64,000 bases of DNA from an uncultured Clostridia bacterium. GTDB taxonomy: Bacteria; Bacillota; Clostridia; Oscillospirales; Ruminococcaceae. The stretch is taken from the NCBI GenBank assembly GCA_944388075.1, contig CALXHI010000028.1, forward strand, positions 1 through 64,000, in the 5' to 3' direction. Both the position numbers and the translations under genes were made by a program. Below are positions 10,644-30,800 of the stretch, one piece after another. The notes under the pieces were generated by a model. That model did not search any database and was not told where the DNA came from. It saw nothing but the letters and a program-made list of their open reading frames with translations. Each line of letters begins with the position of its first letter. Within the stretch, counting starts at the first letter, position 1.

Positions 10644-12473
10644 TTATACTGTTTCTATGGGCAGCGTCCCGAGATTGGCAATATACCGCATTAGCGCAGA
10701 CACATCTGCGGACGTAATAATACCATCCAGATTGCAATCCGCATTCCGCATAGCTGCATCTGTCAGAGGTGTATCCAGTGACTCGGCAATATAGCGATTC
10801 GCCATAACCGCATCTCCAACGGTTACCACACCATCTTCATCCAAATCGCCATAAAGCGGTGCAGCATCGCCGTTCAGCTCAACCTGTACGACCGAAGCCG
10901 CCGGCAGATTGAGCGTCAGCACATTGTTTTCGAGCGATATCACGCAGCTGTCCATCGCAACAACCTCGCTTGCCGCCTCGGTAATGCCATACACCTTCAC
11001 GTTCTCATAGCTGATATTCGTGCCGGTCAGGGTAATTTCGGTGGTCCGGCTGTCGGTCATGCTCTTGTTCGACACCACGACCTGTACGGTGGCATCATTG
11101 CTACCGACATCGGTTGCCGCATAGGCATAGCCTGCCTCGATATTGGAAACCGTACACGGAATGCTCGTATCGCCAAATGCCGAACCGGCACCGTCATAGT
11201 TAGTATAGAGATTGATGGCAGCCTTCTGGAATGGGCAGTCCTCATACGGCCAAAGTGTTGCCAGATAGACCTCCTGCACGCCGAATACACCCAAAGCATC
11301 TGCCTGTGCAACCGCACCGCTAATGGTGTTGCCACCACCGAACGAATACTCCGACAGGCTGATTTTCGTACCAGGATAGTACCGGTCAATGGAATCCTGA
11401 ATCTTCGGCAGATAGGGCAGATAGGATTTGCCCCACTGACCAACCCAGCTGTTCTCCGCATAGGACGAATCCCAGAATGTCCGCACCGCCTGCATACGGG
11501 TTTCCTGACAGGCAGTATGGCTTGCATCATCGCAGTTTACAATTCGACAGTCGCCCTGTGCTTCCGAGTAGTTGTGAATATCGAGCACATCGAGCAGGCG
11601 CACGCCCTGTGTCTCCGAGGCTTTGCGCATCTGATCAAGGTAGTAGGAGATGAACCAGTCATAACCATTGCCGACCGTGCCCCAATCCGTTGCAGATTGC
11701 AAGTTGACATACGCCTGATGACCATAGAGGGCAGGCCCATAAATCTCCGCAGCCGGATCAACCGCCTTGACCGCCGATGCCAGCTCTACGGACTTGTCTA
11801 CCAGTTCCTGACAGGTTACCGGTGTGGCATGAATGCGTGCATGCGTGCTGCTCCAGAGCGCCGGCTCATTGTCGAGCAGATAACCCTTGATACCGGTTGC
11901 CGTGGTCGCATCGCCGAGATGGCGCACGAGGTAGTTGACATATTCATCCATATACACGGTACCGTCGGTCAAATCCGGTGTATCGGCAAAGACTGCATTC
12001 TTCTTTGCCACAACCGCATTCCAACGGGTCGAGGGTGCAGCTTCCTCCTCCGTCACCTTGCCGTTAATATCGGCAGCGACATAGCCGCACATCTGGAGCG
12101 TTGCGACGGTGTAGAGATTGCCTCGTTCCGCCGCCATGGCAGAGAGCTGCCTTGCACAGTCTGCCGGATCCGTCGAAGAGGAAAGGTAGGTATCGGAGCT
12201 GTGATACCAGTCCGAGCCGGCATTGGACGCATTGGTTTCCCAGTTATAGGCAGTATAGCGGTTGCCGCCCTGCCGAATCGATCCAACCGTCACATCACCG
12301 GTTGCGGCATAGTCATTGATACCATAGATATATGGGCTGATAGCATGGCGTTCCGCAGACAGATCGACCTGTACGGACAGCGTGTTGGCAGCATCTGCCG
12401 TCACCGCACCGGATACCGAGCAAAGCCCGACCAGTGCCGACAGATAGCAGGCACAAAACTTTAAGTGCTTCAT
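10644..12473 (-). CDS. Secreted GH44 family glycoside hydrolase with type I dockerin
   Basis: A cellulosomal enzyme of 609 residues. It has a signal peptide (about 1-29, cleavage after the TADA region), a GH44 (beta/alpha)8 domain with its beta-sandwich (about 32-540), and a C-terminal dockerin (about 545-609). The expected acid/base Glu is in LLDNEPALW (Glu203) and the nucleophile in ISLSEYSFGG (Glu375). The dockerin has two Ca-binding loops, GDLDEDGVVTVGDA and ADCNLDGIITSADV. GH44 enzymes are mainly endoglucanases or xyloglucanases; the substrate here is not proven. ATG 12473 is preferred to TTG 12479 because of its distance to AAGGGGG. No scaffoldin or cohesin gene is in the window. Confidence 0.93.
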   Translation of the reverse strand: MKHLKFCACYLSALVGLCSVSGAVTADAANTLSVQVDLSAERHAISPYIYGINDYAATGDVTVGSIRQGGNRYTAYNWETNASNAGSDWYHSSDTYLSSSTDPADCARQLSAMAAERGNLYTVATLQMCGYVAADINGKVTEEEAAPSTRWNAVVAKKNAVFADTPDLTDGTVYMDEYVNYLVRHLGDATTATGIKGYLLDNEPALWSSTHARIHATPVTCQELVDKSVELASAVKAVDPAAEIYGPALYGHQAYVNLQSATDWGTVGNGYDWFISYYLDQMRKASETQGVRLLDVLDIHNYSEAQGDCRIVNCDDASHTACQETRMQAVRTFWDSSYAENSWVGQWGKSYLPYLPKIQDSIDRYYPGTKISLSEYSFGGGNTISGAVAQADALGVFGVQEVYLATLWPYEDCPFQKAAINLYTNYDGAGSAFGDTSIPCTVSNIEAGYAYAATDVGSNDATVQVVVSNKSMTDSRTTEITLTGTNISYENVKVYGITEAASEVVAMDSCVISLENNVLTLNLPAASVVQVELNGDAAPLYGDLDEDGVVTVGDAVMANRYIAESLDTPLTDAAMRNADCNLDGIITSADVSALMRYIANLGTLPIETV

Positions 12474-12545
12474 GAACAAAATCCCCCTTGAACCGGATAT
12501 TCAGGCATGCGGTACAATCCTAAATTATCCTTTAAATTACAATAT

Positions 12546-14030: not shown

Positions 14031-14051
14031 CTGCTGTCAGGAGGTGGTCAC

Positions 14052-15743
14052 ATGAAAGTTGTCATCATCGGTGGCGTTGCAGGCGGTGCGACCGCTGCTG
14101 CCAGAATCCGCAGACTCGATGAATCCGCAGAAATTGTCATATTCGAGAAATCCGGGTTCATCTCCTATGCCAACTGCGGTCTGCCCTATTATATCGGCGG
14201 TACGATTCCGCAAGCGTCTAGCCTGACCTTGCAAACACCGCAGAGCTTTGCCGCACGCTTTCATGTGGCTGTTCATATCAACCATGAAGTGACTGCCATT
14301 CACCCTGCCGAGCAATGTGTGACCGTCAAGAATCTGCAGACCGGCAAGGAACGTGCGGAATCCTATGACAAGCTCCTGATCGCAACCGGTGCAAAACCCT
14401 TGCGACCGGCATTGCCGGGCATCAATTCGGAACGCCTTTTCTCCCTGCGTACAGTTGAGGACACGCTCCGCATTCGGCAATATGTCGAGAACACCAAACC
14501 CTGTTCTGCGGTCATTGTCGGCGGCGGCTTTATCGGTGTGGAGATGGCAGAGAACCTGCGGGAGTTGGGTCTGGATGTCACGGTTTTGCAGTCGGGCGAT
14601 CAGCTCATGCCGATTTTCGATCGGGATATGGCAGCATGGCTGCATACGGAAATGCGCCAAAACGGCGTCAATCTCGTGCTGAATGCAAGAGTCAACAGCT
14701 TCTTGACCGATGACCATTCCATTCACACCCGGCTTCCTGATGGCAGAACGTTCTCTTCGGATTTCGTGATACTTGCCATCGGCGTACATCCTGATACCCA
14801 TCTTGCAAAAGCTGCCGGGTTGGCACTGGGCTTGAAGGAGAGCATTCTCGTCAATGAACGCATGGAAGCCTCCGTACCGAATATCTATGCTGTTGGCGAT
14901 GCGGTACAGGTCAACCATACAGTCACAAATGCTGCAGCGCTGATTGCACTGGCAGGACCTGCCAACAAGCAAGGACGCATCGCTGCCGACAACATCTGTG
15001 GTCGAAACAGCCGGTATTGGGGCAGTCAGGGCAGCTCGATTCTCAAGGTGTTCCGCCTGACCGCCGCCGCTACCGGTATCAATCAGAAAACCGCACAGGC
15101 ACTCGGCATGAAAACCGAAAAGGTGATCCTCTCGCCGATGAGCCATGCGGGCTACTATCCCGGCGGCAAGGTCATGACGATGCAGGTACTGTTCGAGCCG
15201 GAAACCGACCGCCTGCTTGGGGCACAAATCATCGGCTATGACGGTGTGGACAAGCGCATTGATGTACTGGCAACCGCCATCCATGCCGGCATGCAGGCAT
15301 CGAAATTGGCAGAGCTGGATTTGGCATATGCGCCGCCCTACGCTTCCGCTAAGGATCCGGTCAACATTGCCGGATTCATGATCGAGAATCTCGAAACCGG
15401 ATTGATCCGCCAATGGTATGCCGAGGACGCCGATACCCTGCCCCGAGACGGCAGTGCCGAACTCATCGATACCCGAACACCCGGTGAATATGCCGCCGGC
15501 CATCTCGAGGGCTTTGTCAACATTCCGGTGGACAACCTGCGAGAGTGCATCGGGGAAATTGCAACCGACAAGCCGGTATATCTGGTCTGCCAGAGCGGAG
15601 TGCGCAGCTATATTGCCGCACGCATTTTGGAAGGATATGGTATCACCGCCTCCCATCTTGCCGGCGGCTATCGCCACTATTCCGCCCTCTGCACCGATCG
15701 AGCTTTGACCAAATCGACAACCGCATGCGGCATGGATGCCTAA
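14052..15743 (+). CDS. CoA-disulfide reductase-like flavoprotein with C-terminal rhodanese domain
   Basis: A 563-residue FAD/NAD(P)H pyridine nucleotide-disulfide oxidoreductase of the single-cysteine group. The FAD-binding GGVAGG motif is at the N-terminus, the redox Cys42 is in SYANCGLPYY, the NAD-binding GGGFIGVEMAE is near residue 160, and the FAD motif NIYAVGDA near 280. Residues 460-555 form a rhodanese domain with its active Cys513 in CQSGVRS. This arrangement matches CoADR-RHD proteins, which reduce CoA disulfide, persulfides or polysulfide. The rhodanese Cys favours persulfide chemistry. The exact substrate is not determined. It is cotranscribed with trxA. Confidence 0.9.
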   Translation: MKVVIIGGVAGGATAAARIRRLDESAEIVIFEKSGFISYANCGLPYYIGGTIPQASSLTLQTPQSFAARFHVAVHINHEVTAIHPAEQCVTVKNLQTGKERAESYDKLLIATGAKPLRPALPGINSERLFSLRTVEDTLRIRQYVENTKPCSAVIVGGGFIGVEMAENLRELGLDVTVLQSGDQLMPIFDRDMAAWLHTEMRQNGVNLVLNARVNSFLTDDHSIHTRLPDGRTFSSDFVILAIGVHPDTHLAKAAGLALGLKESILVNERMEASVPNIYAVGDAVQVNHTVTNAAALIALAGPANKQGRIAADNICGRNSRYWGSQGSSILKVFRLTAAATGINQKTAQALGMKTEKVILSPMSHAGYYPGGKVMTMQVLFEPETDRLLGAQIIGYDGVDKRIDVLATAIHAGMQASKLAELDLAYAPPYASAKDPVNIAGFMIENLETGLIRQWYAEDADTLPRDGSAELIDTRTPGEYAAGHLEGFVNIPVDNLRECIGEIATDKPVYLVCQSGVRSYIAARILEGYGITASHLAGGYRHYSALCTDRALTKSTTACGMDA

Positions 15744-15751
15744 CACAGAAG

Positions 15752-16460: not shown

Positions 16461-18881
16461 TCACTGTGATTCGACCTTGCAGAAGATACAGGGCACGGCT
16501 GCGGTAATCGGCTTTTGCAGTACGCCGACCTGATATTCCAGCAACAGCGTACCTTTGTGTGCATGCGCCGGAATCGGCAAGACCAGCTCCGGATTGACAC
16601 CGGCATCCACGGCAGTAAGCTCCAGTTCTTGCTGCGGCACGAGCCATTGCCCCTTTGCATCGGTAATCCCCCAACGCAATGTACCGTTTCTCTTGTCATC
16701 GGCAATCGCAAGCGGCAGCCGTAAAACCGTACCGGTCGGAATATAGGCAATCTGCGGCACACGGAATTGCAATGCATCTCCCTGTCCTTCCAGTGCATAC
16801 TCCGGCAATACGCCATAGAGATTGCGGTAGACCTGCTCTGCCATCTCGTTGGCAGCATGGGCAACCGTTTGTCGTTGCAGCTCTCGTTCCCAACGGGCAA
16901 TCTTTTCTATGCTCTCGGCAATCGCCGTATCTGCGTGGTATTCGGTATGCATACCCTCGAACACATGCCCTGCGGTATAGAGCACATCGTAGAAATTCTC
17001 AAAGCAATAGTGCTTCGGCTTACACCAAAGCGTCCAGTCCGTATGCGCCCCCGGCCATGCGATGGTGCAATACGGCTCTGCCAAGAATTTCTGCGGATAA
17101 TGCTTCAGCCCGTAGTTGAAATAAATGCTCCACTCGCCCAGACCCTTCCGTTCAATGCCCGGATACGCATCGAGCAGTTCACAGTACAGCTTGCGCTCGA
17201 TCACCTGCGGCTGATGGGAGGAATACTGCAAGGTCGGCATCTGCTCTCCGAGCAGAAAGTCACGAGTTCGGAACTGTCCCAAATCATAGGACGTGTAATT
17301 GCCCTGCGTACCCTTCCATTCACAAAGGTCATAGCAATAGTAGGCACGGTAACGACCCTGCGTGCGGAATACTTCTTCAGTCAGCGGATACAGCGGCCGA
17401 TAGTCATCGTCGCACATCACGAACAGCTCGTCGAGCGGCGCTTTGCGCAGAATCAAACAGCGCAGGAACAGGTTGCGGGTGATATGGTCCTCCGGCAAGC
17501 TTTCCCCGGCAAGCAGCTGCTCATCGGTGAAAAACTTCAGCTGTACACGGCCTTGCCATTTCGCCTGCAATTCCGCAACATTGCGTTCCGGACAGCATAC
17601 CAGAACCTCCTCGATGAACGGCATACATGCATCCCAAGACGGCAGCGCACGCAGCAAATCCTCGTTTCTGGCACTGAGTACGAGCATCTGCCGAATCGGG
17701 CAATCCAGAGCCTGCCCTTGGATTTGGCCCATTTCGCAAAGCGCCTGCATCATCTGGTCGGTACAGTCATCCCAAGTAGTCGGAGTAAATGCGGCAATCT
17801 TTGCACGCTTTTCCTGATAGGCATTCGGGTCGGTCACCAAAGCCTGTACCGCCGATACGAGCGCATCGACGCTTGTCTGATCAAAATAATCCGCATACGA
17901 TCCGCCGACTTCCCGCAACACCGGCAAATCCGATGCCAAGACCGGTGTGCCGTGCAAAAACGCCTCGACAATCGGCAGACCAAAGCCCTCATTCTGTGTC
18001 GGGAATACCACCGCAAGCGCATTGGCATACAGTTCCCGAATCGTTGCATCGGTCGGCGAATTGGCAAAGAAAAACCATTTGCCGTTTTCCGGATGATTCT
18101 CCATGCGTTTCCGGAACTCCTCCATATTCCAACCGATTCTTCCGGCGAATACCACTCGCACATTGATCGTTGCCAGACGCTCCACCGCATCGAGCAGCAG
18201 TGCATGATTCTTTCTCGGCTCAATCGTGCCGACCATCAGGACATACCGATGCTTTGGCAGCTTTGCAAGCAGTTCCCGATCCGGTTCTTCCGCACTCGTC
18301 TTGCGTGCAAAATCTGCACCAAGCGGTACGACTGCCGTTGGCGGCGGTGTCAATTGCAGAGACTTGCAGAGCGTTGCAATGGCATTCTTGGTCGCATGCG
18401 CATTGCAGATGATATGGTCGGCATAACGCAGTACCATCGAAATCCACGTCAAAAACTGCCGCATGGTTTGCTCGTGAAAAAAATACGGATGTGTGACCGG
18501 AATGATGTCATACACATGCGCCACCACCGTCACGCCACGCTGTTTCAGCAGCGGATAAAGCCACGCTCTTGCCATATTCATATTCCATGCGCTGTCGATA
18601 TCAAAGAAAATCGCAAAGGTCGGAATATCCTGCGGCGAGAGAATGCGGGGCTGCTGCGTCCCATAGGGCGAACCGGTCTGCTCGGTGTAGTATGCGGCAA
18701 AGGCATCCGGGTCAAGGACACGCCATTGGATATGGTTCGGGCATTCTGCCAGCAGCGTGACATCCAAATCCGGATTTTGTAGCATCCGCAGTACAATCGA
18801 CTTCGCCACACGCTGTATGCCGGTTGTAAATGTCGTCAAGCAGAGCCGTGACAGGTCGATGTAAACAGCCGTCTTTGCCAT
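16461..18881 (-). CDS. Large multidomain glycosyltransferase: GT4, second transferase-like domain, C-terminal beta domain
   Basis: An 806-residue protein at the end of the polysaccharide operon. Residues 1-385 are a GT4 (GT-B) enzyme with the GTIEPRKN donor loop and the NEGFGLPIVEA motif. Residues about 395-700 form a second domain with DITRN-like HITRN and a DDDYRP motif (Asp491-493) that recalls the metal-binding acidic triad of GT-A enzymes. The last 90 residues look like an all-beta domain similar in style to the C-terminal part of the adjacent Wzt. The ATG at 18881 shares one base with the preceding stop. Probable polymerising or chain-modifying transferase; linkage unknown. Confidence 0.8.
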   Translation of the reverse strand: MAKTAVYIDLSRLCLTTFTTGIQRVAKSIVLRMLQNPDLDVTLLAECPNHIQWRVLDPDAFAAYYTEQTGSPYGTQQPRILSPQDIPTFAIFFDIDSAWNMNMARAWLYPLLKQRGVTVVAHVYDIIPVTHPYFFHEQTMRQFLTWISMVLRYADHIICNAHATKNAIATLCKSLQLTPPPTAVVPLGADFARKTSAEEPDRELLAKLPKHRYVLMVGTIEPRKNHALLLDAVERLATINVRVVFAGRIGWNMEEFRKRMENHPENGKWFFFANSPTDATIRELYANALAVVFPTQNEGFGLPIVEAFLHGTPVLASDLPVLREVGGSYADYFDQTSVDALVSAVQALVTDPNAYQEKRAKIAAFTPTTWDDCTDQMMQALCEMGQIQGQALDCPIRQMLVLSARNEDLLRALPSWDACMPFIEEVLVCCPERNVAELQAKWQGRVQLKFFTDEQLLAGESLPEDHITRNLFLRCLILRKAPLDELFVMCDDDYRPLYPLTEEVFRTQGRYRAYYCYDLCEWKGTQGNYTSYDLGQFRTRDFLLGEQMPTLQYSSHQPQVIERKLYCELLDAYPGIERKGLGEWSIYFNYGLKHYPQKFLAEPYCTIAWPGAHTDWTLWCKPKHYCFENFYDVLYTAGHVFEGMHTEYHADTAIAESIEKIARWERELQRQTVAHAANEMAEQVYRNLYGVLPEYALEGQGDALQFRVPQIAYIPTGTVLRLPLAIADDKRNGTLRWGITDAKGQWLVPQQELELTAVDAGVNPELVLPIPAHAHKGTLLLEYQVGVLQKPITAAVPCIFCKVESQ

Positions 18882-19384
18882 TATGCGCCCCCCCTTCCGG
18901 CGATTTTCTTTGCGATTTTCTTCAGCGGCTGCGGCATCGCATGGTACAGTCGCATCACACGCTCCGGTACTGCCGGGCCGGACACATTGACCGTCACGGC
19001 AAGCCCATTCTCCGCAATCGGCAGCGGACAATCCCGCAAGGGAATGCCGTGCATCCGATATTCCTCCGAATGGAGAATCGCTTTCAGCAACATCGTACGA
19101 AAGGCAGTCTGCTCCATATCGAGCTGTGATTGCCGTGCCGCCTTTGCACCCGGATCAATGGGTCTGCCCAACAGCAGCATATACGCCGCTTCGAGAAACT
19201 CCGCATTGTTCAGATGCTCCAGCTGCCGATAGGATGTTCCCTCCGGATCGACCATCGACAGCGTCAGAAACATTTCTTCTGCGCAGGGCATTTCTTTCCC
19301 TGCCGCCTGCATATTCTGTGCAGCAATGCCGTAAACAGACCGCAGCAATGCCGCATCGGATACATTGGGAAACCGTTGCGCCAT
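18881..19384 (-). CDS. Small DUF4214-like protein of the polysaccharide locus
   Basis: A 167-residue soluble protein. Its central part (about 58-110) has the DUF4214-type pattern AAYMLLLGRPIDPGA followed by a helix and LHSEEYR. Such domains accompany glycosyltransferases and surface-glycan genes, but their function is not established. The C-terminus is basic (KKIAKKIAGRGGA) and could associate with membrane. It lies between the GT-methyltransferase gene and the large GT gene, and its stop overlaps the next start, so translation is coupled. Confidence 0.7.
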   Translation of the reverse strand: MAQRFPNVSDAALLRSVYGIAAQNMQAAGKEMPCAEEMFLTLSMVDPEGTSYRQLEHLNNAEFLEAAYMLLLGRPIDPGAKAARQSQLDMEQTAFRTMLLKAILHSEEYRMHGIPLRDCPLPIAENGLAVTVNVSGPAVPERVMRLYHAMPQPLKKIAKKIAGRGGA

Positions 19385-19399
19385 AGTGCATCCTCCTTC

Positions 19400-21805
19400 T
19401 TATTTGAGCGACGCCCCGTCCATCCGGCAAACAGCTGCCGTCCAGGTCATCGGCTCATCACAAAATTCATCCGGCAGTTGATAGAGTCCCTGCCCAATCG
19501 GTATCAGTGCCACCAAGCGCAAACCGTTTTGTGCCAGCTCTCGGCGAATGCTTTCCGGTGTCCAGAATACATCGTAGATATTGTATTTGCCCCAGCCGTT
19601 GTGATAGCGATGCGGCACTTCAAAGCGGATATTCGGCACGTCAAACAGCAAAATGCCATCCGTGGTCAGCGCATTGCGCAGCTTTTCCCAAAGCATTCTG
19701 CGGTCGCTGTATTCATAATGCCGAATGAACCGAAAAATCGTGATCACATCGTACTGTCCCTGCAACGGGTCGGCAATCAGGTCAATCGGATAGGTTTCCA
19801 AATCGGCATGGGGGAATCTTGCCTTCACCCGCTCGAGCATGGCCTCCGACGCATCACCGGCAGTGCAGTGTCCAAAGGTTAACATCGTCTGCAAAATGCG
19901 GCCATCTCCGCATGCCAAATCGAGCAATCGCAAATCATGCCTGCGATCTGCGGTCAGCTGCTCGAGCAATACGGCAACGCTCTGCCGCTCCATACGGTCA
20001 AAACAGTTCTGCGGATATGCCACAAAACGGTCAACGGTATAATTTTTGGCGATATCCTGCCGTTGATAGTATGCCTTCAAAGCGGAATAGCCCTTGACGA
20101 GATGGCGGTTTTCGAGCTTGAGCTGCCGATCCCATTCATAAATCGTGCAAACACCATAGGGCGTTGCCTGCTCGATGCACTGTTCCGCATAGCGCACGAA
20201 TGCCGCACCGGAAACCAAATCCCGCAGCTTGGTAATGCGCCAATCCTCCCGATAGGCATCATAGGATATGCGCAGCTGTCGCAATGCTGCAGCCATATCT
20301 GCCGCTTGTGTGCCGTCTGCCACAATGCCAAGTCCGGTTTGTGCAATCAGCTCGAATATACCGGAAACCGGTGTTGCCACCGTCGGAATTCCCATGCACA
20401 TTCCTTCGAGCGCAGAAAGCGAACAGGCATGGTTATAGTTTTCATCGGCATAGGGAATCAAAATGCTGTCAATTTCGCTGTAGAATGCCGCCATATCGCA
20501 GCGTCCTGTACGCACCGCACAGTTCGGTGCAGCCTGCAAAGCTTCGGGAATCGGGACGGCATCAGCATCCCGCCACAACACAACAAACCGCATCTCCGGA
20601 CAAGCCGCAACCAGTTCACACAGTGCCGGTATGCCCCTCGAATTGACCTGCTCGGGGCGCATCGGCGAGGATGCAAATCCAACCGTAAACTGTTCCGCAT
20701 CATAGCCGTGCGGTCTACGGGAAAACATCGGCTTGTCGAGATTCAGATACGGATACATCACCGCAGGCCGCCGGAATCCCATGCGTTCCATCGTATCAGC
20801 AGCCGCCTGTGATGCGGTACAGTAATGCTGAATGCCGTAGTCGCTCAAATGCAGCAGCTCCTGCATTTGACTGCCGCCCATGGACTGCGCCGGATTCTGC
20901 GCACTGAGGCGAACAATGCTGTTGCGCAGCAGCATACACTGCTGTCCGGCATTGAGAATCGCAACCGTACTCTCGCAGAAAATCAGCAGAGCCGGATTTT
21001 TTCGGCGCATCCAATCTGCCAATTCCGATTCGGTCAGCGGATAGACATCGGTCTGCTGCACAGGCTGCACCTGTGCGACGATCGACACAATGCAAACCGG
21101 ATAGCGGCTCGAAGCTTTCAGCAGACGGTACAAATCCCAAACCTCGTTCTTGATGGCTTCCATGCCGGCTCCCTCGGCATATTCCCGACAGACCAGCACA
21201 ATCGAACGGCTTTCGCCCTGCGTGGTCTGCGCCTGCATGGCATCGTGAAGCAAACCGGTATATCGCTGTTCGAGCTGCTGCAAGGCAGTTTCTGCGGTTT
21301 CGGGATTCTGCGCCCGACGCACGGCATCCAATTCTGCCGCCATGCGGTCATAGCCCAAATGCGGCATCCGTACCAACGGCGGTGTATCCACATCGGGACG
21401 CGCCGCCGGTGCAGCCGCTGCAAAGCTCCGGTTCACATCCGCAGCCATGCTTGCCGTGATCTGCTTTTGCCGTTCGAGTTCTGCGGTCAGTGCCTGCTCC
21501 AATGCGGCAATGCGGCGATCGGATTCCTGTTTCTGCTGTACCTGCTGCTGTTGCAGCTGTGCCAACTTGTCCTGCATTTCCGCTTCCAGACATTCAAGCG
21601 TCGCCTGTGTTTCGACCAGAACATCAACAGTGGCTTCGTTATAGGCATTCTGTGCCTCACCAAACGGTCGTACATACCAGAATGTCAACTTTCTGCCCAC
21701 ACGCTTTGCCGCCACACCCTTGCCTTCCGGATCCGGTGCGGTAAAGCTGTATTTTTTTGCATTGAGCGTATGCAGCAAGGTTTTGAGTTGTTCCCAATCT
21801 GCCAT
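19400..21805 (-). CDS. Coiled coil - glycosyltransferase - SAM methyltransferase fusion
   Basis: An 801-residue protein. After a 60-residue N-terminal part there is a Gln/Glu/Ala-rich coiled coil at about 62-120, then a GT4-like domain at about 200-550 (ALEGMCMGIPTVATPVSG near 465). A class I methyltransferase follows at about 605-801, with SAM motif LLDLACGDGRI (627-637). In Wzm/Wzt systems that recognise a capped chain, such as E. coli O9a, a coiled-coil methyltransferase (WbdD) ends the chain and sets its length. This protein could play that part, with a GT in place of the kinase. That role is inference. ATG 21805 is chosen for its GGAAAGGAG. Confidence 0.83.
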   Translation of the reverse strand: MADWEQLKTLLHTLNAKKYSFTAPDPEGKGVAAKRVGRKLTFWYVRPFGEAQNAYNEATVDVLVETQATLECLEAEMQDKLAQLQQQQVQQKQESDRRIAALEQALTAELERQKQITASMAADVNRSFAAAAPAARPDVDTPPLVRMPHLGYDRMAAELDAVRRAQNPETAETALQQLEQRYTGLLHDAMQAQTTQGESRSIVLVCREYAEGAGMEAIKNEVWDLYRLLKASSRYPVCIVSIVAQVQPVQQTDVYPLTESELADWMRRKNPALLIFCESTVAILNAGQQCMLLRNSIVRLSAQNPAQSMGGSQMQELLHLSDYGIQHYCTASQAAADTMERMGFRRPAVMYPYLNLDKPMFSRRPHGYDAEQFTVGFASSPMRPEQVNSRGIPALCELVAACPEMRFVVLWRDADAVPIPEALQAAPNCAVRTGRCDMAAFYSEIDSILIPYADENYNHACSLSALEGMCMGIPTVATPVSGIFELIAQTGLGIVADGTQAADMAAALRQLRISYDAYREDWRITKLRDLVSGAAFVRYAEQCIEQATPYGVCTIYEWDRQLKLENRHLVKGYSALKAYYQRQDIAKNYTVDRFVAYPQNCFDRMERQSVAVLLEQLTADRRHDLRLLDLACGDGRILQTMLTFGHCTAGDASEAMLERVKARFPHADLETYPIDLIADPLQGQYDVITIFRFIRHYEYSDRRMLWEKLRNALTTDGILLFDVPNIRFEVPHRYHNGWGKYNIYDVFWTPESIRRELAQNGLRLVALIPIGQGLYQLPDEFCDEPMTWTAAVCRMDGASLK

Positions 21806-21827: not shown

Positions 21828-23060
21828 TTATTCAGTATCTGTGGGAATCTGCCATGTATGCGCAAGGCGCGCGATGCCGGTTTCATCAATCGTATTGTAT
21901 ACGGTAAATTGCACTGCCTTCGAGCGATAGTCATAGGCGAACATATCCGGCCGGCGCAGTGCCACGTCAAACCAATAGCTTCCGGCAATCAAATTCATCG
22001 GCGAAAAGGTACAAGTCATTGTGCCCTTTTCCTTGAGCCGAATGTTCTGAATATGCTCTCGCTGGGTATTCGTACCATAGCAAAGCGCACGGTCGGCACG
22101 ATAGAGCGCAAGCCCGATCAGCACCGCTTCGTCCGGAACAGGATTCGCCTCATACGTCAGCTGCAAGGTGACGGTATCGCCCGTGCAGAATTTATCGATG
22201 CGTTCGCCCTTGTCATTCAGCAAGCAAATATCCGTCCAGCGAACCGTTTTTTCCTGCACGGGTTCTTCCATCGGTACGGTTGCTTTCGGCAGCGGCTTAG
22301 GACTGCCATGCCGCTGCTGACCCATATAATCCAGATACAGCGGATGAACCACACTCGGCGCATCGTCCATCCGAATATTGCCGCTGTCAATCCAAATTGT
22401 GCGGTCACAAATGCGTTCGAGCTGTGCCATGCTGTGAGAGACAATCACAATCGTTGTGCCGGACGCTTTGATTTCCATCAGCCGTTCAAAGCATTTCGCC
22501 TGAAATGCCGCATCGCCGACTGCGAGAATCTCGTCAATCAGTAAGATATCCGCTCCCACATGAATGGCAACCGAAAACGCCAAACGCATATACATACCGG
22601 ACGAATAGGTACGCACGGGCGTATCAATGAACGGCTCCAACTCGGAAAACTCGATGATTTCGTCCATACGGGATTCGATTTCCTTTCGGGTCAAACCGAA
22701 AATCGCCGCATTGGTGATGATATTCTCCCGTCCGGTCATATCGGGATGAAAGCCTGCACCCAGCTCAATCAGCGAGGACACTCTGCCCTCGAGCTTGACG
22801 CTGCCTCCATCCGGATAATAGATACGGCTGAGCAGCTTTAAGAGTGTAGATTTGCCACAGCCGTTTCGTCCGACCAATGCCACAGCCTCGCCCTTACGAA
22901 TCTCAAAGGAAACGCCGCCAAGTACCCAGCGTTCCTCATAGCTGCGGCGTTTTTTGAACAGCAGCTTTTCTTTCAGAGAACGCCCCTGATCGGCATAAAT
23001 TCGGAATTTCTTTTTGAGGTCACGCACCATAATGACGGTATTCGTTGCAGTTGTCTCCAT
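21828..23060 (-). CDS. wzt: ABC transporter ATPase Wzt with C-terminal glycan-binding-like domain
   Basis: ATPase of a two-component ABC polysaccharide exporter, 410 residues. The ATPase domain (about 10-250) has Walker A GRNGCGKST (64-72), the YSSGM signature (152-156) and Walker B DILLIDE (171-177). The IELGAGFHPDMTGREN block is typical of Wzt/TagH/KpsT proteins. Residues about 275-410 form an extra all-beta domain like that of Wzt proteins which bind the capped end of the polysaccharide. Capsule-type and teichoic-acid ATPases lack this. Two in-frame ATGs (23063, 23060) overlap the wzm stop; the second is better spaced from GGAGGAG. Confidence 0.92.
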   Translation of the reverse strand: METTATNTVIMVRDLKKKFRIYADQGRSLKEKLLFKKRRSYEERWVLGGVSFEIRKGEAVALVGRNGCGKSTLLKLLSRIYYPDGGSVKLEGRVSSLIELGAGFHPDMTGRENIITNAAIFGLTRKEIESRMDEIIEFSELEPFIDTPVRTYSSGMYMRLAFSVAIHVGADILLIDEILAVGDAAFQAKCFERLMEIKASGTTIVIVSHSMAQLERICDRTIWIDSGNIRMDDAPSVVHPLYLDYMGQQRHGSPKPLPKATVPMEEPVQEKTVRWTDICLLNDKGERIDKFCTGDTVTLQLTYEANPVPDEAVLIGLALYRADRALCYGTNTQREHIQNIRLKEKGTMTCTFSPMNLIAGSYWFDVALRRPDMFAYDYRSKAVQFTVYNTIDETGIARLAHTWQIPTDTE

Positions 23061-23858: not shown

Positions 23859-24803
23859 TTAGGATTGATACTGTGCCCGCCATGCGTCCAACGTATCAGT
23901 CAGCGTTTGCGCAAGCGAAATCTCCGGCATCCAGCCGGTATCCCGCTGCAAGGCGGTAATATCGGCACAGATCATCGGCGCATCCACCGGCCGTATCCGT
24001 GCCGGATCCGGTTCTACCGTAAACGGCACACGGCATTGTGCCTGAATCATCTGCAAAACCTGCTCGATGGCAATCGCATGACCGCTGCCGACATTGTAGA
24101 CCATGCCGGATGTGCCGCATTCCATCAAGGCCCCATAAGCACGCACCACATCTCGCACATCGGTAAAGTCCCGTTTGGAGCTGAGATTACCGGTACGAAT
24201 CACCGGCTCATGCAGACCGCATTCGATTTCGACTGCCTGCTTGCAGAAATCCGATACCACAAACTGCGGTGTCTGTCCCGGCCCGATATGGTTAAAGGCA
24301 CGCACCGACACAATGTGCATGCCATATGCCTTTGCGTAAATCAAGGCAATCTGCTCGGCACATGCCTTCGTTGCGGCATAGAGATTGCAAGGGTGCAGTG
24401 CTGCCGCTTCCGCAATGGGGTACGCCGATTCCGGATGAATGCCGTATTCCTCCCCCGAACCAATCATCAGCAGCTTTGGCGGCTGTGCCTGCCCACGCAA
24501 TGCTTCCAGTACATTGACCGTACCCTGCACATTGATGGCCACGGTCAGATTCGGCTTCTTCCACGAGAGAGCCACCGAGCTTTGCGCTGCCAAATGCACC
24601 ACCCAATCCGGCTGTACCTGCGCCAAAGTTGCTGCAATCGCATCGGGCTGCAGGATATCCAAATCCAATACGGCGGCATTCGGCACATCGAGCGTTTCCT
24701 GCGGCAATTTGGTTGCAAACACCGTTGCACCCATATCTGCCGTCAAATGCCGAATGAGGTACGGCCCGACAAAGCCTGCCGCACCAATCACCAAAACCTT
24801 CAC
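23859..24803 (-). CDS. rmd: GDP-4-dehydro-6-deoxy-D-mannose reductase
   Basis: A 314-residue extended SDR enzyme. The NAD(P)-binding GAAGFVG is at the N-terminus and the catalytic Tyr-x3-Lys is in NLYAATKACAEQ. The GSGEEYG motif is characteristic of Rmd, which reduces the 4-keto product of Gmd to GDP-D-rhamnose. Fucose synthase (GMER) would differ in the active-site region. A GTG start at 24803 is chosen for the AGGGAGG ahead. With gmd and manC in the same operon the complete route from mannose-1-phosphate to GDP-D-rhamnose is present. The choice of rhamnose over another 6-deoxyhexose is inferred. Confidence 0.85.
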   Translation of the reverse strand: MKVLVIGAAGFVGPYLIRHLTADMGATVFATKLPQETLDVPNAAVLDLDILQPDAIAATLAQVQPDWVVHLAAQSSVALSWKKPNLTVAINVQGTVNVLEALRGQAQPPKLLMIGSGEEYGIHPESAYPIAEAAALHPCNLYAATKACAEQIALIYAKAYGMHIVSVRAFNHIGPGQTPQFVVSDFCKQAVEIECGLHEPVIRTGNLSSKRDFTDVRDVVRAYGALMECGTSGMVYNVGSGHAIAIEQVLQMIQAQCRVPFTVEPDPARIRPVDAPMICADITALQRDTGWMPEISLAQTLTDTLDAWRAQYQS

Positions 24804-24805
24804 GG

Positions 24806-26005
24806 CTATTCCTCCCTTTTCACTTTGCGCTGATACGGCATACCGGCAAACCGAGTGCCCTCGAGCAGCACCTCCCATGTCTGCCGCAATATCTGTGCAA
24901 TATCGAATGTTTCCAGCACCCGTTCTCTTGCCGCCATGCCGTACTGCACACGCAGTTCATCCTCCGTCACGAGCAGCTGCATGGCATCGGCAAGAGATGC
25001 GGCATCCGATGGCGGCACGGTCAAACCGGTTTTCCCATGCAAGCTGACAAGCGGTACGCCGGTTGGCAATGCCGTATTGATGACGGGCTTGCCATAGACC
25101 ATCGCTTCCAGCTGCACAATGCCAAAGGCTTCACTGTTTGCCACAGACGGCAAGACGAAGATATCACAATCCCGAAACGCCGCACGCAATTCCGGTGTCA
25201 CCCGTCTGCCGAGAAAATGCACCCGCTGTGCAATGCCCAGTTCCGCAGCTCTTGTCTTCAGCGTATCTCTCAACACGCCATCACCTGCCAAAAACAGCTC
25301 CGCATTCCCTATCACCTTGGCAAAGGCTTCCAGCAGCACATCCACGCCCTTATAATAGACCAACCGTCCGACAAAGAGGATCTTCTTTGCAGACGGATCA
25401 TGCAGGCGTTGTGTGAGTACCGGCACGGTCGGTGCAGCGGCATATTCCTTCGGGGAAATGCCATAGGGAATCACCACGCATTTCTCCCGAAATTCCCGTA
25501 AATACGGTGAGCTGTCGATATGCGCCTTGGTAGCCACGATAATCGCATCCGCACGGCGCAGCAGCCACCGCATCAGCGGTGCATAGAGCTTGAGCAGCCG
25601 CTTTTGCCGCACCACATCGCTATGCCATGCGACAACCACTCTGCCCTTGTATCCGGAAAGCAGGCATGCCAGATCCGCCGGCGGAAACGGCAGATGCAAT
25701 TCGACCACATCCGCACACATCACCTTGCGCCGAAACTGCATCACGAATTCCGGCGAAAGCGGACAGGATGCCACCGTGCCAAGGCTGCCGCAGCGCAAGA
25801 CCGGTACACCGTGAATGCGTTCGACCTGCGACAGCCCCCAATCGTCTCGACAGGTCAATACGGAAACCTTCGCCCGCCCATTGCAGCCATCGGCAACCTG
25901 CTGCATGACGGTTTCGATGCCGCCGATATGCGGATCATAGGCCTTCCCGACAATCAAAATGCGGGGCTTTTGCCCACGCATTTCGGTATGATTTGCTTGT
26001 TTCAT
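24806..26005 (-). CDS. GT4 family glycosyltransferase
   Basis: A 399-residue retaining GT-B enzyme. It shows an N-terminal PHIGGIETVMQQVA acceptor-side motif, the VGRLVYYKGVDVLLEAF donor loop and the ANSEAFGIVQLEAM motif with the E-x7-E signature. It resembles the D-rhamnosyl or mannosyl transferases of the WbpX/Y/Z type in general form. Acceptor and linkage cannot be determined from sequence by eye. It ends 2 nt before rmd and starts 13 nt after the other GT4 gene. Confidence 0.9.
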   Translation of the reverse strand: MKQANHTEMRGQKPRILIVGKAYDPHIGGIETVMQQVADGCNGRAKVSVLTCRDDWGLSQVERIHGVPVLRCGSLGTVASCPLSPEFVMQFRRKVMCADVVELHLPFPPADLACLLSGYKGRVVVAWHSDVVRQKRLLKLYAPLMRWLLRRADAIIVATKAHIDSSPYLREFREKCVVIPYGISPKEYAAAPTVPVLTQRLHDPSAKKILFVGRLVYYKGVDVLLEAFAKVIGNAELFLAGDGVLRDTLKTRAAELGIAQRVHFLGRRVTPELRAAFRDCDIFVLPSVANSEAFGIVQLEAMVYGKPVINTALPTGVPLVSLHGKTGLTVPPSDAASLADAMQLLVTEDELRVQYGMAARERVLETFDIAQILRQTWEVLLEGTRFAGMPYQRKVKREE

Positions 26006-26018
26006 ATGGTATCCCTTT

Positions 26019-28234
<2,216 letters not shown>

Positions 28235-29323
28235 TTACAACAATTCGCCTCTGCCCTGCTCCCGCAGCATTTCGGTCATCTTCTTGATATCCTGTGCGGA
28301 ATCGACATCGCAAATCAACAGGGCATCTTCGGTATCCACAACAATCATATGCTCGACGCCAACCGCCGCAATCAGCCGCTTGCCGCCGACAAAAACGCTG
28401 TTCTTTGTTCCGACGGTCAAGACATCGCCGCTGCGGTAATTGCCGTTGGTATCGGTTTTCGCCACACGGCGCAGAGCCGGCCAGCTGCCGACATCGTCCC
28501 AGCCAAAGCTGCCGGGAATGGTATAGATATGGTCGGCGCGTTCCAGCACACCGTAATCCACCGACTCCGACGGCATCTTCTCAAATTCCGTTTGCAGGAT
28601 TTCAGGAAATTGCTCCGTGCCATATGCCGCAATCAATGCCTTCGCACCGGCAGAAACCGCCGGCAGATATTGCTCTAAGGCTGCCAGATAGGTGCTTGCC
28701 TTCCACGCAAACATACCGCTGTTCCAGAGGAATCGACCCGATTCCACATATTGTCTTGCCGTATTGACATCTGGCTTTTCCTTGAACGAGGACACGGTGT
28801 AGACACCGGCAGGGGTTTCAGTGCTGCGGCTGTATTCGATATAGCCATAGCCGGTTTCGGGATAGGTCGGGGTAATACCAATGGTAACGAGATTCTGTCC
28901 TGCCGCCGCCGCATGAATCGCACGGCTTAGCACATCTACGCAAAGTGCCACATGCCGAATTACATGGTCGGACGGCAGCACCAGCATCACAGCATCGCCA
29001 TAGCGCTTGGTAATGACCGCCGCCGCCAAAGCGATGCAAGGTGCGGTATTGCGTGCCACAGGCTCTTGCAACAGATTTTCCGCCGGAATCTCCGGCAGCT
29101 GCTCCTTGACCAAATCCATATAGTTCGCATTCGTCACAACGAAAATATACTCCGATGCGACCAAGCCCTGCAAGCGTCGGACGGTTTTCTGAATCATGGT
29201 TTCGCCGTCACCGGTCAAGGACAGGAATTGCTTCGGGCGATGGGTTCGGCTCATTGGCCAAAAGCGTTCGCCCTTACCGCCTGCCATAATCACAGCGGTA
29301 ATCGGTCTGATTTGCTCACTCAT
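28235..29323 (-). CDS. manC: Mannose-1-phosphate guanylyltransferase
   Basis: Makes GDP-mannose from mannose-1-phosphate and GTP. The 362-residue single-domain enzyme has the nucleotidyl signature MAGGKGERFWPMSR, followed by the PKQFL motif. The central LPSDHVI and ETGYGYIEY, and GSFGWDDVGSW near the C-terminus, are all diagnostic. It lacks the phosphomannose isomerase domain of bifunctional AlgA/WbpW proteins, so isomerase and phosphomannomutase must be encoded elsewhere. It overlaps the preceding transferase gene by 8 nt. Confidence 0.95.
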   Translation of the reverse strand: MSEQIRPITAVIMAGGKGERFWPMSRTHRPKQFLSLTGDGETMIQKTVRRLQGLVASEYIFVVTNANYMDLVKEQLPEIPAENLLQEPVARNTAPCIALAAAVITKRYGDAVMLVLPSDHVIRHVALCVDVLSRAIHAAAAGQNLVTIGITPTYPETGYGYIEYSRSTETPAGVYTVSSFKEKPDVNTARQYVESGRFLWNSGMFAWKASTYLAALEQYLPAVSAGAKALIAAYGTEQFPEILQTEFEKMPSESVDYGVLERADHIYTIPGSFGWDDVGSWPALRRVAKTDTNGNYRSGDVLTVGTKNSVFVGGKRLIAAVGVEHMIVVDTEDALLICDVDSAQDIKKMTEMLREQGRGELL

Positions 29324-30722
29324 CTTGCGTCTCCTTTTGGGATTGATTGGGATGGGAATTTGGTTTTGTTTTGTAATCGGTCATTGTCAGGCCTTCTGCC
29401 GCATTGGTTTTCGGCGGGAACAAGGCCGTCTTGATCGTCATGAGTAAAATTTGCAGATCCAACACAAAGGAATATTGCTCGATATACATCAGGTCCATTT
29501 TCAACTTGTCAAACGCTCCGGTATCGTAAGTACCGGTCACCTGCGCATAGCCGGTCAAACCTGCCTTCACCTGCAAGCGATAAGCAAATTCGGGGAATTG
29601 CTTAGTATATTCCGCAGAAAGCTCCGGTCGCTCGGGTCGAGGTCCGACCAGCGACATATCCCCTTTCAGGATATTGAGCAGCTGCGGCAGCTCGTCCAAC
29701 CGGAATCGCCGCAGTACCGCACCGACCTTCGTGATACGGGCATCGTGATCGGCTGCGAGGACTGCCTTGCCATCCGCTTCGGCATTGGGAATCATGCTGC
29801 GGAATTTCAGCACATCAAATTCTCTGCCGTCACGGGTCAAACGCCGCTGTCGATACAGCACCGAGCCGCCGTCCTCCAGCTTGACTGCCAAGGCACAAAT
29901 CGCCAGAATCGGCAGCAGCAAAACCAGCAGTACCGCCGATACCAGCAAATCAAACGACCGCTTGAGAAATCGCTGCTCGATGGTCAAACCCTCATTGCGG
30001 CAGAGAATCAACGGCGTATCGAACAGTCGGATTTCCTCTCCGCCACGCAGAATGATATCCGAAAGCTTCGGGGAGACATAGGCACGAATGCGATGACCGC
30101 AGCAGTATTTGACCAGTTCATTGCGCAGCTTTGCCTCGATATCACACAGAATCACACCGTCAAACTGTTGCAGCTCCTTGATAATTTGCTCGTAGCCGAT
30201 GGACACATCCAAGCTTTCGCAGATCATATATTTGTCAACACGGGCACTCATCTTCAGCACCAAATCCGCTGCATGCTTGGAACCATACACAATGACCAAT
30301 TGCCTTGGCGGATACAGCCAAAAATACAGATGATTGAACAAAAGCGACCAGCAGACAATCAACACCCAATCTGCCAAGGTCAAAACCAACAGCGGTGTTG
30401 GGGACATCAGATGCCGACCGATGACGCTGACCTGCAAATAGCTGAGGGCATTGACCAACGTAATCGCAATCACCTGATTATAGATCAGGTCACTTCGCTT
30501 CAAATATCCGTATTTTAAGCAGCCGTAAGCCTTGAAAAACACGGCAGTCAATACGGCGTAAATCAACACAACAACCCAGTTTCCACGGCGGAAAAACGGT
30601 TCGATGATAGCAGTGGCATAATAGCACTGCCAAACATAGGCAAACTCCAGCGTCAACACGCACAGCAGCAAAAAGCCGGATCCCAATGACACCAGATGCC
30701 GATATGCTCTTCTCTGTTTCAT
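29316..30722 (-). CDS. Polyprenyl glycosylphosphotransferase (initiating transferase)
   Basis: A 468-residue initiating enzyme of the WbaP/WcaJ type that transfers a sugar-1-phosphate to undecaprenyl phosphate. Four to five membrane helices lie in the N-terminal third, then a linker domain with a Rossmann-like stretch. The C-terminal catalytic domain carries KRSFDLLVSAVLLVLLLP, QRRLTRDGREFDVLKFRSM and SLVGPRPERPE. It is the first gene of the polysaccharide operon and lies 72 nt past a near-consensus promoter. The sugar it transfers is not known. An upstream in-frame start has no ribosome-binding site; ATG 30722 is preceded by AAAAAGGAG. Confidence 0.92.
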   Translation of the reverse strand: MKQRRAYRHLVSLGSGFLLLCVLTLEFAYVWQCYYATAIIEPFFRRGNWVVVLIYAVLTAVFFKAYGCLKYGYLKRSDLIYNQVIAITLVNALSYLQVSVIGRHLMSPTPLLVLTLADWVLIVCWSLLFNHLYFWLYPPRQLVIVYGSKHAADLVLKMSARVDKYMICESLDVSIGYEQIIKELQQFDGVILCDIEAKLRNELVKYCCGHRIRAYVSPKLSDIILRGGEEIRLFDTPLILCRNEGLTIEQRFLKRSFDLLVSAVLLVLLLPILAICALAVKLEDGGSVLYRQRRLTRDGREFDVLKFRSMIPNAEADGKAVLAADHDARITKVGAVLRRFRLDELPQLLNILKGDMSLVGPRPERPELSAEYTKQFPEFAYRLQVKAGLTGYAQVTGTYDTGAFDKLKMDLMYIEQYSFVLDLQILLMTIKTALFPPKTNAAEGLTMTDYKTKPNSHPNQSQKETQDE

Positions 30723-30800
30723 ACTGCTCCTTTTTCGCTCTCTCAACGGTTTGCTGTTTCTTTCTCCCAACCACGTTCACCAATTGCTGCATACAAGGAT

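What the first reader, a model, noticed from the sequence alone, without database searches (positions are those of the whole stretch)
19400..21805. Coiled coil - GT - methyltransferase fusion as a candidate chain terminator and length ruler
Seen: a single 801-residue protein joins a coiled coil, a GT4 domain and a SAM methyltransferase, directly downstream of a Wzt with an extra beta domain. Known: in E. coli O8/O9a, WbdD uses a coiled coil as a molecular ruler, and its methyl cap is the signal read by the Wzt C-terminal domain. Inference: this gene is a functional analogue built differently, with a glycosyltransferase replacing the kinase part.
Basis: partly seen in the sequence, partly recalled or inferred. 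Interest (0 to 1): 0.75.

Follow-up and report, generated by a model that had tools for sequence, protein, structure and literature searches.

The report
Methyl-cap chain terminator with glycosyltransferase insert
A gut/rumen Ruminococcus-type bacterium carries one protein that probably sits on the membrane, holds a sugar-adding and a methyl-adding enzyme at the end of a helical rod, and caps a surface sugar chain so that its exporter recognises it as finished; it is a Gram-positive variant of a system worked out in E. coli, Klebsiella and Geobacillus.

Summary
Window 19400-21805 (-) encodes one 801-aa protein: amphipathic N-terminal anchor, one ~84-residue helix, a GT4/GT-B domain and a class I methyltransferase (MTase). 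It lies 22 bp downstream of a Wzt with a Wzt_C cap-binding domain (CBM), in a GDP-mannose/GDP-6-deoxyhexose glycan locus of a Ruminococcus-type genome.

The terminator reading gains strong genomic support. A profile of the anchor and coil alone, without the MTase, retrieves proteins from other Bacillota that mostly follow a Wzt_C gene directly and usually end in an MTase. Where the transporter cluster was lost, the catalytic motifs decayed. In one genome the CBM and this protein decayed together, including the aromatic that lids the methyl pocket in Aquifex.

"GT replaces the kinase" is not supported: the commonest relatives are anchor-coil-MTase with neither kinase nor GT, so the GT4 looks inserted into an MTase-only terminator of reversed domain order. 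Closest precedents: WsaE, MTase-only WbdD of E. coli O8, Klebsiella O7 ORF6, and the Aquifex methyl-cap reader.

Cap chemistry, ruler function and the GT's role remain inference. The GT has an invariant His at the first Glu of EX7E.

New variant of a known kind; interest 0.5.

The parts
19400..21805 (-). 801-aa anchor - coil - GT4 - methyltransferase fusion protein (candidate chain terminator)
21632..21718 (-). N-terminal anchor motif, residues 30-58 (KRxGRKLTFWYVxPFGxxQNxxN), amphipathic and cationic; shared with MTase proteins that follow Wzt_C genes in other Bacillota
21413..21664 (-). single long helix, residues 48-131 (candidate coiled-coil spacer/ruler; N53-P133 span 59-98 residues in the intact homologues)
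20171..21214 (-). GT-B (GT4) domain, residues 198-545
20405..20431 (-). EX7E-equivalent motif H459-x7-E467: invariant His in place of the first Glu
19421..20011 (-). class I SAM methyltransferase domain, residues 599-795
19892..19927 (-). SAM-binding motif I, residues 627-638 (LLDLACGDGRIL)
21828..23060 (-). Wzt: ABC ATPase with C-terminal cap-binding domain (Wzt_C)
21861..22265 (-). Wzt_C cap-binding domain; Tyr378 aligns with Aquifex Trp362, which lids the methyl pocket
   Evidence: PMC9445017
23060..23851 (-). Wzm, ABC-2 permease
23859..24878 (-). NAD-dependent epimerase/dehydratase family (SDR), candidate GDP-4-keto-6-deoxymannose reductase (assignment inferred)
24806..26005 (-). GT4 glycosyltransferase a (candidate polymerase component)
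26019..27173 (-). GT4 glycosyltransferase b (candidate polymerase component)
27170..28228 (-). GDP-mannose 4,6-dehydratase (TIGR01472, above cut-off)
28235..29323 (-). mannose-1-phosphate guanylyltransferase (ManC-like)
29316..30770 (-). polyprenyl-phosphate sugar-1-phosphate transferase (initiating enzyme)
18881..19384 (-). small DUF4214-like protein (weak, E = 0.062), directly downstream of the fusion
   Evidence: DUF4214 genes lie near a comparable Pseudomonas locus
16461..18881 (-). 806-aa GT4 protein with an unassigned C-terminal half

Best explanation
The protein is the chain terminator of a Wzm/Wzt-CBM glycan pathway. A lipid-linked polymer of GDP-mannose-derived sugars (probably D-rhamnose and/or D-mannose) grows in the cytoplasm at the membrane through the neighbouring GT4 enzymes. 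The terminator sits on the membrane by its N-terminal amphipathic helix. Its ~84-residue helix, probably oligomeric, holds the GT4 and MTase domains about 12 nm away. Only chains long enough to reach that far are modified: the GT4 domain adds or positions the last sugar and the MTase O-methylates it, which stops growth. The methylated end fits the pocket of the Wzt CBM, and the transporter then exports the chain. Shown here: architecture, gene context, co-occurrence, co-decay, homology of the MTase, and relation of the CBM to a methyl-cap reader. Inferred: methyl cap, polymer identity, ruler function, GT role.
For: (1) Conserved locus: the order PHPT-ManC-GMD-GT4b-GT4a-SDR-Wzm-Wzt-fusion is kept in the genus and largely in other lineages. 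(2) Anchor-first tests: an anchor+coil profile over 398 Bacillota genomes hits 5 others. All 5 carry Wzt_C (35 of 397 do; p = 4e-6) and 4 of 5 hits lie directly after it. A second scan gives 14 credible new loci, 9 directly after a Wzt_C. (3) Wzt_C-first test: 8 of 9 Wzt_C genes of the CYGTNT type have an anchor protein next downstream (second gene in one case), against 0 of 32 others (p about 1e-7). (4) Co-decay: after loss of the cluster in four genomes His459 of the GT is lost in all four, SAM motif I is destroyed in two and altered in a third. In G011, where the rest of the cluster remains, the fusion has lost half its GT and its SAM motif, its branch is 1.4 against 0.18 in its sister, and the CBM is at 29% identity while the ABC part keeps 70%. 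The one relative next to a CBM-less Wzt lacks the MTase core. (5) The Aquifex CBD, which binds 3-O-methyl-D-Man caps (PMC9445017), is the best PDB sequence match of the window's CBM, though weakly (0.012), and clearly matches a CBM of the same clade (5.7e-9). The Trp362 lid column is Tyr in all Wzt_C paired with an intact fusion and Ala in G011. (6) In G009 the fusion is unlinked from Wzt, yet both are intact.
Against: No chemistry is known for this glycan. Some anchor loci with an aromatic lid show no MTase in the stretch read (L116, L160, L161), so the anchor-CBM link does not always involve a fused MTase. The heptad signal is weak in this species. The aromatic lid is common among Wzt_C generally, so its presence alone is weak evidence; its loss in G011 is the informative point. 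Decayed copies still keep open frames and the anchor, which the model does not explain.
Confidence: 0.68

Rival explanations
1. The GT4 domain is part of the polymerase, as in WsaE and Klebsiella O7 ORF6, and only the MTase terminates.
For: WsaE and O7 ORF6 carry both polymerising GTs and the terminating MTase (PMC2943079, PMC11231755). A Campylobacter relative is MTase-coil-GT4-GT4.
Against: In the characterised Klebsiella and E. [quoted passage not shown]). Here the GT is on the same side as the MTase. The locus already has two or three free-standing GT4 enzymes, and most anchor-coil-MTase relatives lack the GT.
Confidence: 0.22
2. The GT-like domain is not catalytic: it is an acceptor-binding platform that presents the chain end to the MTase.
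For: The first Glu of EX7E is replaced by an invariant His. The GT and MTase domains decay together.
Against: The C-terminal half of the GT, where a GT-B enzyme binds its donor, holds the most invariant columns of any region in intact copies (35), as expected if a nucleotide sugar still binds.
Confidence: 0.25
3. The MTase modifies an internal sugar or a protein, and the link with Wzt is operon hitchhiking.
For: Internal O-methylation is common in bacterial glycans (general knowledge). No substrate was tested; the methyltransferase families matched are generic.
Against: Linkage to Wzt_C recurs across Bacillota through the anchor module, the pair is kept in G009 although unlinked, and the CBM and the MTase decay together in G011.
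Confidence: 0.12
4. It is a terminator but not a ruler: the helix is only a scaffold or oligomerisation element.
For: Coil length varies from 59 to 98 residues between intact homologues. WsaE methylates in vitro independently of chain length (PMC2943079).
Against: The extended coiled coil is described as the marker of this assembly strategy and is an established ruler in two systems (PMC11231755). Length variation is also what different modal chain lengths would need.
Confidence: 0.3

Closest known systems
WsaE, Geobacillus stearothermophilus S-layer glycan (PMC2943079)
   Same: Gram-positive; one protein joins a sugar O-methyltransferase with GT domains; gene next to wzm/wzt; the methyl cap is proposed to end the chain and be read by Wzt.
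   Different: MTase is N-terminal, with two GT domains; methylation in vitro was independent of chain length; works on an L-rhamnan. No sequence comparison with WsaE was made here.
WbdD, E. coli O8 / O9a (PMC3482155)
   Same: Terminator on a coiled coil with a membrane-proximal end; cap required for export. The O8 form is a methyltransferase without kinase.
   Different: Order is MTase-(kinase)-coil-anchor and it has no GT; here anchor-coil-GT4-MTase.
Klebsiella pneumoniae O7 ORF6 and O12 WbbB (PMC11231755)
   Same: Terminator, coil and GT modules in one polypeptide; export by an ABC transporter that reads the cap.
   Different: The terminator is N-terminal and the GTs lie on the far side of the coil; O7 adds methyl-phosphate, O12 a terminal sugar by a GT. 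Loci L036/L037 in the same order as the window resemble O7 ORF6 in architecture.
Aquifex aeolicus Wzm/Wzt CBD (PMC9445017)
   Same: Cap reader for 3-O-methyl-D-Man/Rha on a Rha/Man polymer; best PDB sequence match of the window's CBM (weak) and a clear match for a CBM of the same clade.
   Different: His350 is Arg and Trp362 is Tyr in the window clade, so the ligand may differ.
Anchor-coil-MTase proteins after Wzt_C in Bacillota (L075, L076, L077, L120, L154, L165-L168)
   Same: Related anchor motif, coil and class I MTase; same place directly after Wzt_C.
   Different: No GT domain; an extra N-terminal motif (about xxEIMxxIRxxI) that the window protein lacks. I found no paper describing this group.

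Membership tests
Coiled-coil chain terminators of CBM-dependent ABC glycan pathways (WbdD/WbbB type) | Terminating enzyme domain on the same polypeptide as an extended coil | tested here: met
   heptad signal weak in this species, and that the enzyme terminates is not shown
Coiled-coil chain terminators of CBM-dependent ABC glycan pathways (WbdD/WbbB type) | Membrane-associated amphipathic segment at the opposite end of the coil from the catalytic domain | tested here: inconclusive
   an amphipathic cationic helix is there, residues ~30-45; membrane binding itself is not testable here
Coiled-coil chain terminators of CBM-dependent ABC glycan pathways (WbdD/WbbB type) | Partner Wzt carries a cap-binding domain | tested here: met
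   PF14524 5.5e-21; co-occurrence
Coiled-coil chain terminators of CBM-dependent ABC glycan pathways (WbdD/WbbB type) | Adds a cap at the non-reducing end that stops growth and is needed for export | not testable with these tools
   inferred from context and co-decay only
WbdD proper (O9a) | Kinase domain next to an N-terminal MTase | tested here: not met
   no kinase domain; MTase is C-terminal; GT4 present
WsaE-type methylrhamnosyltransferase | N-terminal MTase with two GT domains | tested here: not met
   one GT, MTase at the C-terminus; sequence similarity to WsaE not tested
GT4 glycosyltransferases | GT-B fold | tested here: met
   Foldseek to PimA, BshA, WaaG, E about 1e-11 to 1e-12
GT4 glycosyltransferases | EX7E motif | tested here: not met
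   His459 at the first Glu, Glu467 kept
Wzt_C cap-binding domain (of the partner Wzt) | Score above Pfam cut-off and alignable cap pocket | tested here: met
   75.5 bits against cut-off 30.4; pocket columns

The most novel reading that the evidence does not exclude
A two-step cap made at the far end of one rod: the GT4 domain, with a His in place of the first EX7E Glu, adds a dedicated last sugar that occurs nowhere else in the chain, and the fused MTase then methylates it. The co-evolving CYGTNT-type Wzt_C reads sugar and methyl together. This would be a terminator class with an N-terminal membrane anchor, spread in Bacillota and not yet described.
Probability: 0.35. Interest if true: 0.65.

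Novelty: new variant of a known kind. Interest (0 to 1): 0.5.

Why it matters
Cap-dependent chain termination has been worked out mainly in Gram-negative O antigens. This work gives a sequence handle (the anchor motif) for candidate terminators in Gram-positive gut and rumen bacteria, shows that they track one type of Wzt cap-binding domain, and supplies natural losses in which reader and writer decay together. It makes direct, testable predictions: a methylated end group, coil-dependent chain length, and a role for an unusual GT4. It also warns that the anchor-coil module can exist without a fused methyltransferase.

Tried and rejected
tblastn of the anchor+coil of a relative against plasmids: no match. 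Full-length phmmer against the PDB gave only generic MTase and GT hits. hhalign of the two families aligned only the MTase part; the anchor relation rests on HMM hits. The anchor HMM did not match the proteobacterial relatives, so I do not claim the same anchor there, only a similar layout. A model of an anchor-coil-MTase relative was poor outside the MTase (pLDDT 57) and is not used. One anchor hit (L162) is antisense to a tRNA-synthetase-like gene and was dropped. I considered 'aromatic lid if and only if MTase' as a general rule; it does not hold outside the genus because most Wzt_C have an aromatic there anyway. The genus-level Fisher test (p = 0.011) is weakened by shared ancestry; I rely more on the repeated losses seen on the tree. 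Paper searches for Ruminococcus Wzt systems, Rhizobium etli caps and Bacillota terminators gave nothing on this protein.

Full report
OBSERVATION. The minus-strand gene at 19400-21805 encodes 801 aa from a conserved ATG. Pfam assigns a GT4 C-terminal domain and a class I methyltransferase. The AlphaFold model (mean pLDDT 80, 21 homologues in the alignment) shows an N-terminal helix (31-45), one continuous helix (48-131), a complete GT-B fold (about 200-545) and an MTase (599-794). Foldseek gives PimA and other GT4 enzymes for the GT, and CypM and 3L8D for the MTase. The upstream gene, 22 bp away, is Wzt with Pfam Wzt_C. Upstream of that are Wzm, an SDR, two GT4 enzymes, GDP-mannose dehydratase, a ManC-like enzyme and an initiating sugar-phosphate transferase. 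The gene order and short gaps look like one operon (inference). The closest records are MAGs named Ruminococcus sp. or Oscillospiraceae.

DISTRIBUTION. 25 of 100 sampled genomes (the window's own included) have the protein, all in the same genus, where 24 of 29 other genomes match, a few only with fragments. A scan of GTDB species genomes adds five loci outside that set (L064-L067, L071). In L064-L067 the fusion is intact and directly follows Wzt.

LINK TO THE CAP READER. In the genus, 21 genomes have both Wzt_C and the fusion, 1 has Wzt_C only (on a 3.6-kb contig), 4 the fusion only and 4 neither (Fisher p = 0.011; shared ancestry inflates this). The four 'fusion only' genomes have no recognisable Wzm. 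Their fusion lies near the METALLO gene with the transporter cluster missing between them. His459 of the GT is lost in all four; SAM motif I is destroyed in two (L020, L023), altered in L019 and intact in L022. On the tree they sit in three places: L019/L020 with L018, L023 with L006, and L022 apart.

CO-DECAY IN G011. Here the biosynthetic cluster is present, but the fusion lacks the second half of the GT and SAM motif I. Its branch is 1.4 against 0.18 in its sister. Its Wzt keeps 70% identity to the window's in the ABC part but only 29% in the CBM; the more distant L064 has 70% and 48%. The CBM has lost the CYGTNTQRE and DMFAYDY motifs. At the column of Aquifex Trp362, which lids the methyl pocket and whose W362L change essentially abolishes LPS binding (PMC9445017), the window clade has Tyr and G011 has Ala. 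A more distant relative, L071, has a 244-aa Wzt without CBM and a 535-aa homologue without SAM motif I and without the GT C-half.

ANCHOR-FIRST TEST. A profile made only from the anchor and coil (A4) was run over 398 Bacillota genomes. It hits five besides the window's own; all five carry Wzt_C, against 35 of 397 overall. Four of the five hits are directly downstream of Wzt_C. Four of the five are anchor-coil-MTase proteins with open frames of 418-527 aa; the fifth (L074) is a 150-aa anchor-coil protein. A wider anchor profile (A6) over 341 and 83 genomes gave 14 credible new loci. Nine lie directly after a Wzt_C, one directly after a Wzt without CBM (and has no MTase), and four near GT4 genes. 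Conversely, of 41 Wzt_C loci read, 8 of 9 with a CYGTNT-type CBM have an anchor protein downstream and 0 of 32 others do (test run with 31). In L038 the anchor protein is the second gene, after a coil-FkbM-type methyltransferase (FkbM assignment is my reading). The type boundary was drawn after seeing the data, so this p value is indicative.

PROTEOBACTERIA. MTase relatives on plasmids show a similar layout. In Pseudomonas putida, Shinella and Campylobacter they follow a Wzt with CBM; by eye the Pseudomonas form is helix-coil-MTase, the Shinella form MTase-coil, and the Campylobacter form MTase-coil-GT4-GT4. The anchor profile itself does not match them.

MECHANISM. The anchor segment is amphipathic and cationic (moment about 0.5-0.7). 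The helix of 84 residues would span about 12 nm (calculated at 0.15 nm per residue). The catalytic domains are at the far end, the arrangement reported for characterised terminators (PMC11231755). A reader domain of the same clade aligns with the Aquifex CBD at 5.7e-9, although the window's own copy does so only at 0.012. Aquifex exports a Rha/Man polymer with 3-O-methyl caps, and the window locus carries GDP-mannose and GDP-6-deoxyhexose genes, so a methyl cap on such a sugar is the simplest prediction (inference). The GT has an invariant His at the first Glu of EX7E and keeps the second. It may add the last sugar, or only present it.

Right: the architecture, the position and the WbdD/Wzt analogy. 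Not supported: GT replacing a kinase. Relatives without GT also lack a kinase, E. coli O8 WbdD lacks one (PMC3482155), and domain order is reversed. Missed: WsaE (PMC2943079).

LIMITS. No biochemical data. Most genomes are MAGs, so absences can be assembly gaps; the four cluster losses are seen within contigs of 20-54 kb with other genes in place. Literature was searched only in open-access papers, so 'not described' means not found here.

Noticed in passing
L028-L031 (G007, G008, G022, G029): Copies of the fusion that lost their transporter cluster keep open frames of 775-827 aa and nearly all invariant anchor residues while the catalytic motifs decay; why they persist is unexplained.
   Followed up: partly
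L158, L160, L161: Two short anchor-coil proteins in tandem, without methyltransferase; after Wzt_C in L160 and L161, next to GT4-like genes in all three.
   Followed up: no
L036:6126-9638, L037:3-2651: After Wzt_C in the same order: MTase - unassigned domain - coil - GT2 domains (two GT2 in L036; L037 cut by the contig end), resembling Klebsiella O7 ORF6.
   Followed up: partly
L150:3980-7315 (Campylobacter sp. RM16187 plasmid): 1111-aa MTase - coil - GT4 - GT4 protein directly after Wzt, annotated only as glycosyltransferase.
   Followed up: partly
L040 and L041 (G009): The locus is split: sugar genes to Wzt in one place, fusion-DUF4214-GT4 in another, and both halves look intact.
   Followed up: partly
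window 16461-18881: GT4 protein whose C-terminal ~400 residues match no Pfam family.
   Followed up: no
window 14037-15746: 569-aa open frame without any Pfam or NCBIfam match.
   Followed up: no
window 10644-12479: Glycoside hydrolase family 44 with a dockerin domain, a cellulosome-type enzyme.
   Followed up: no
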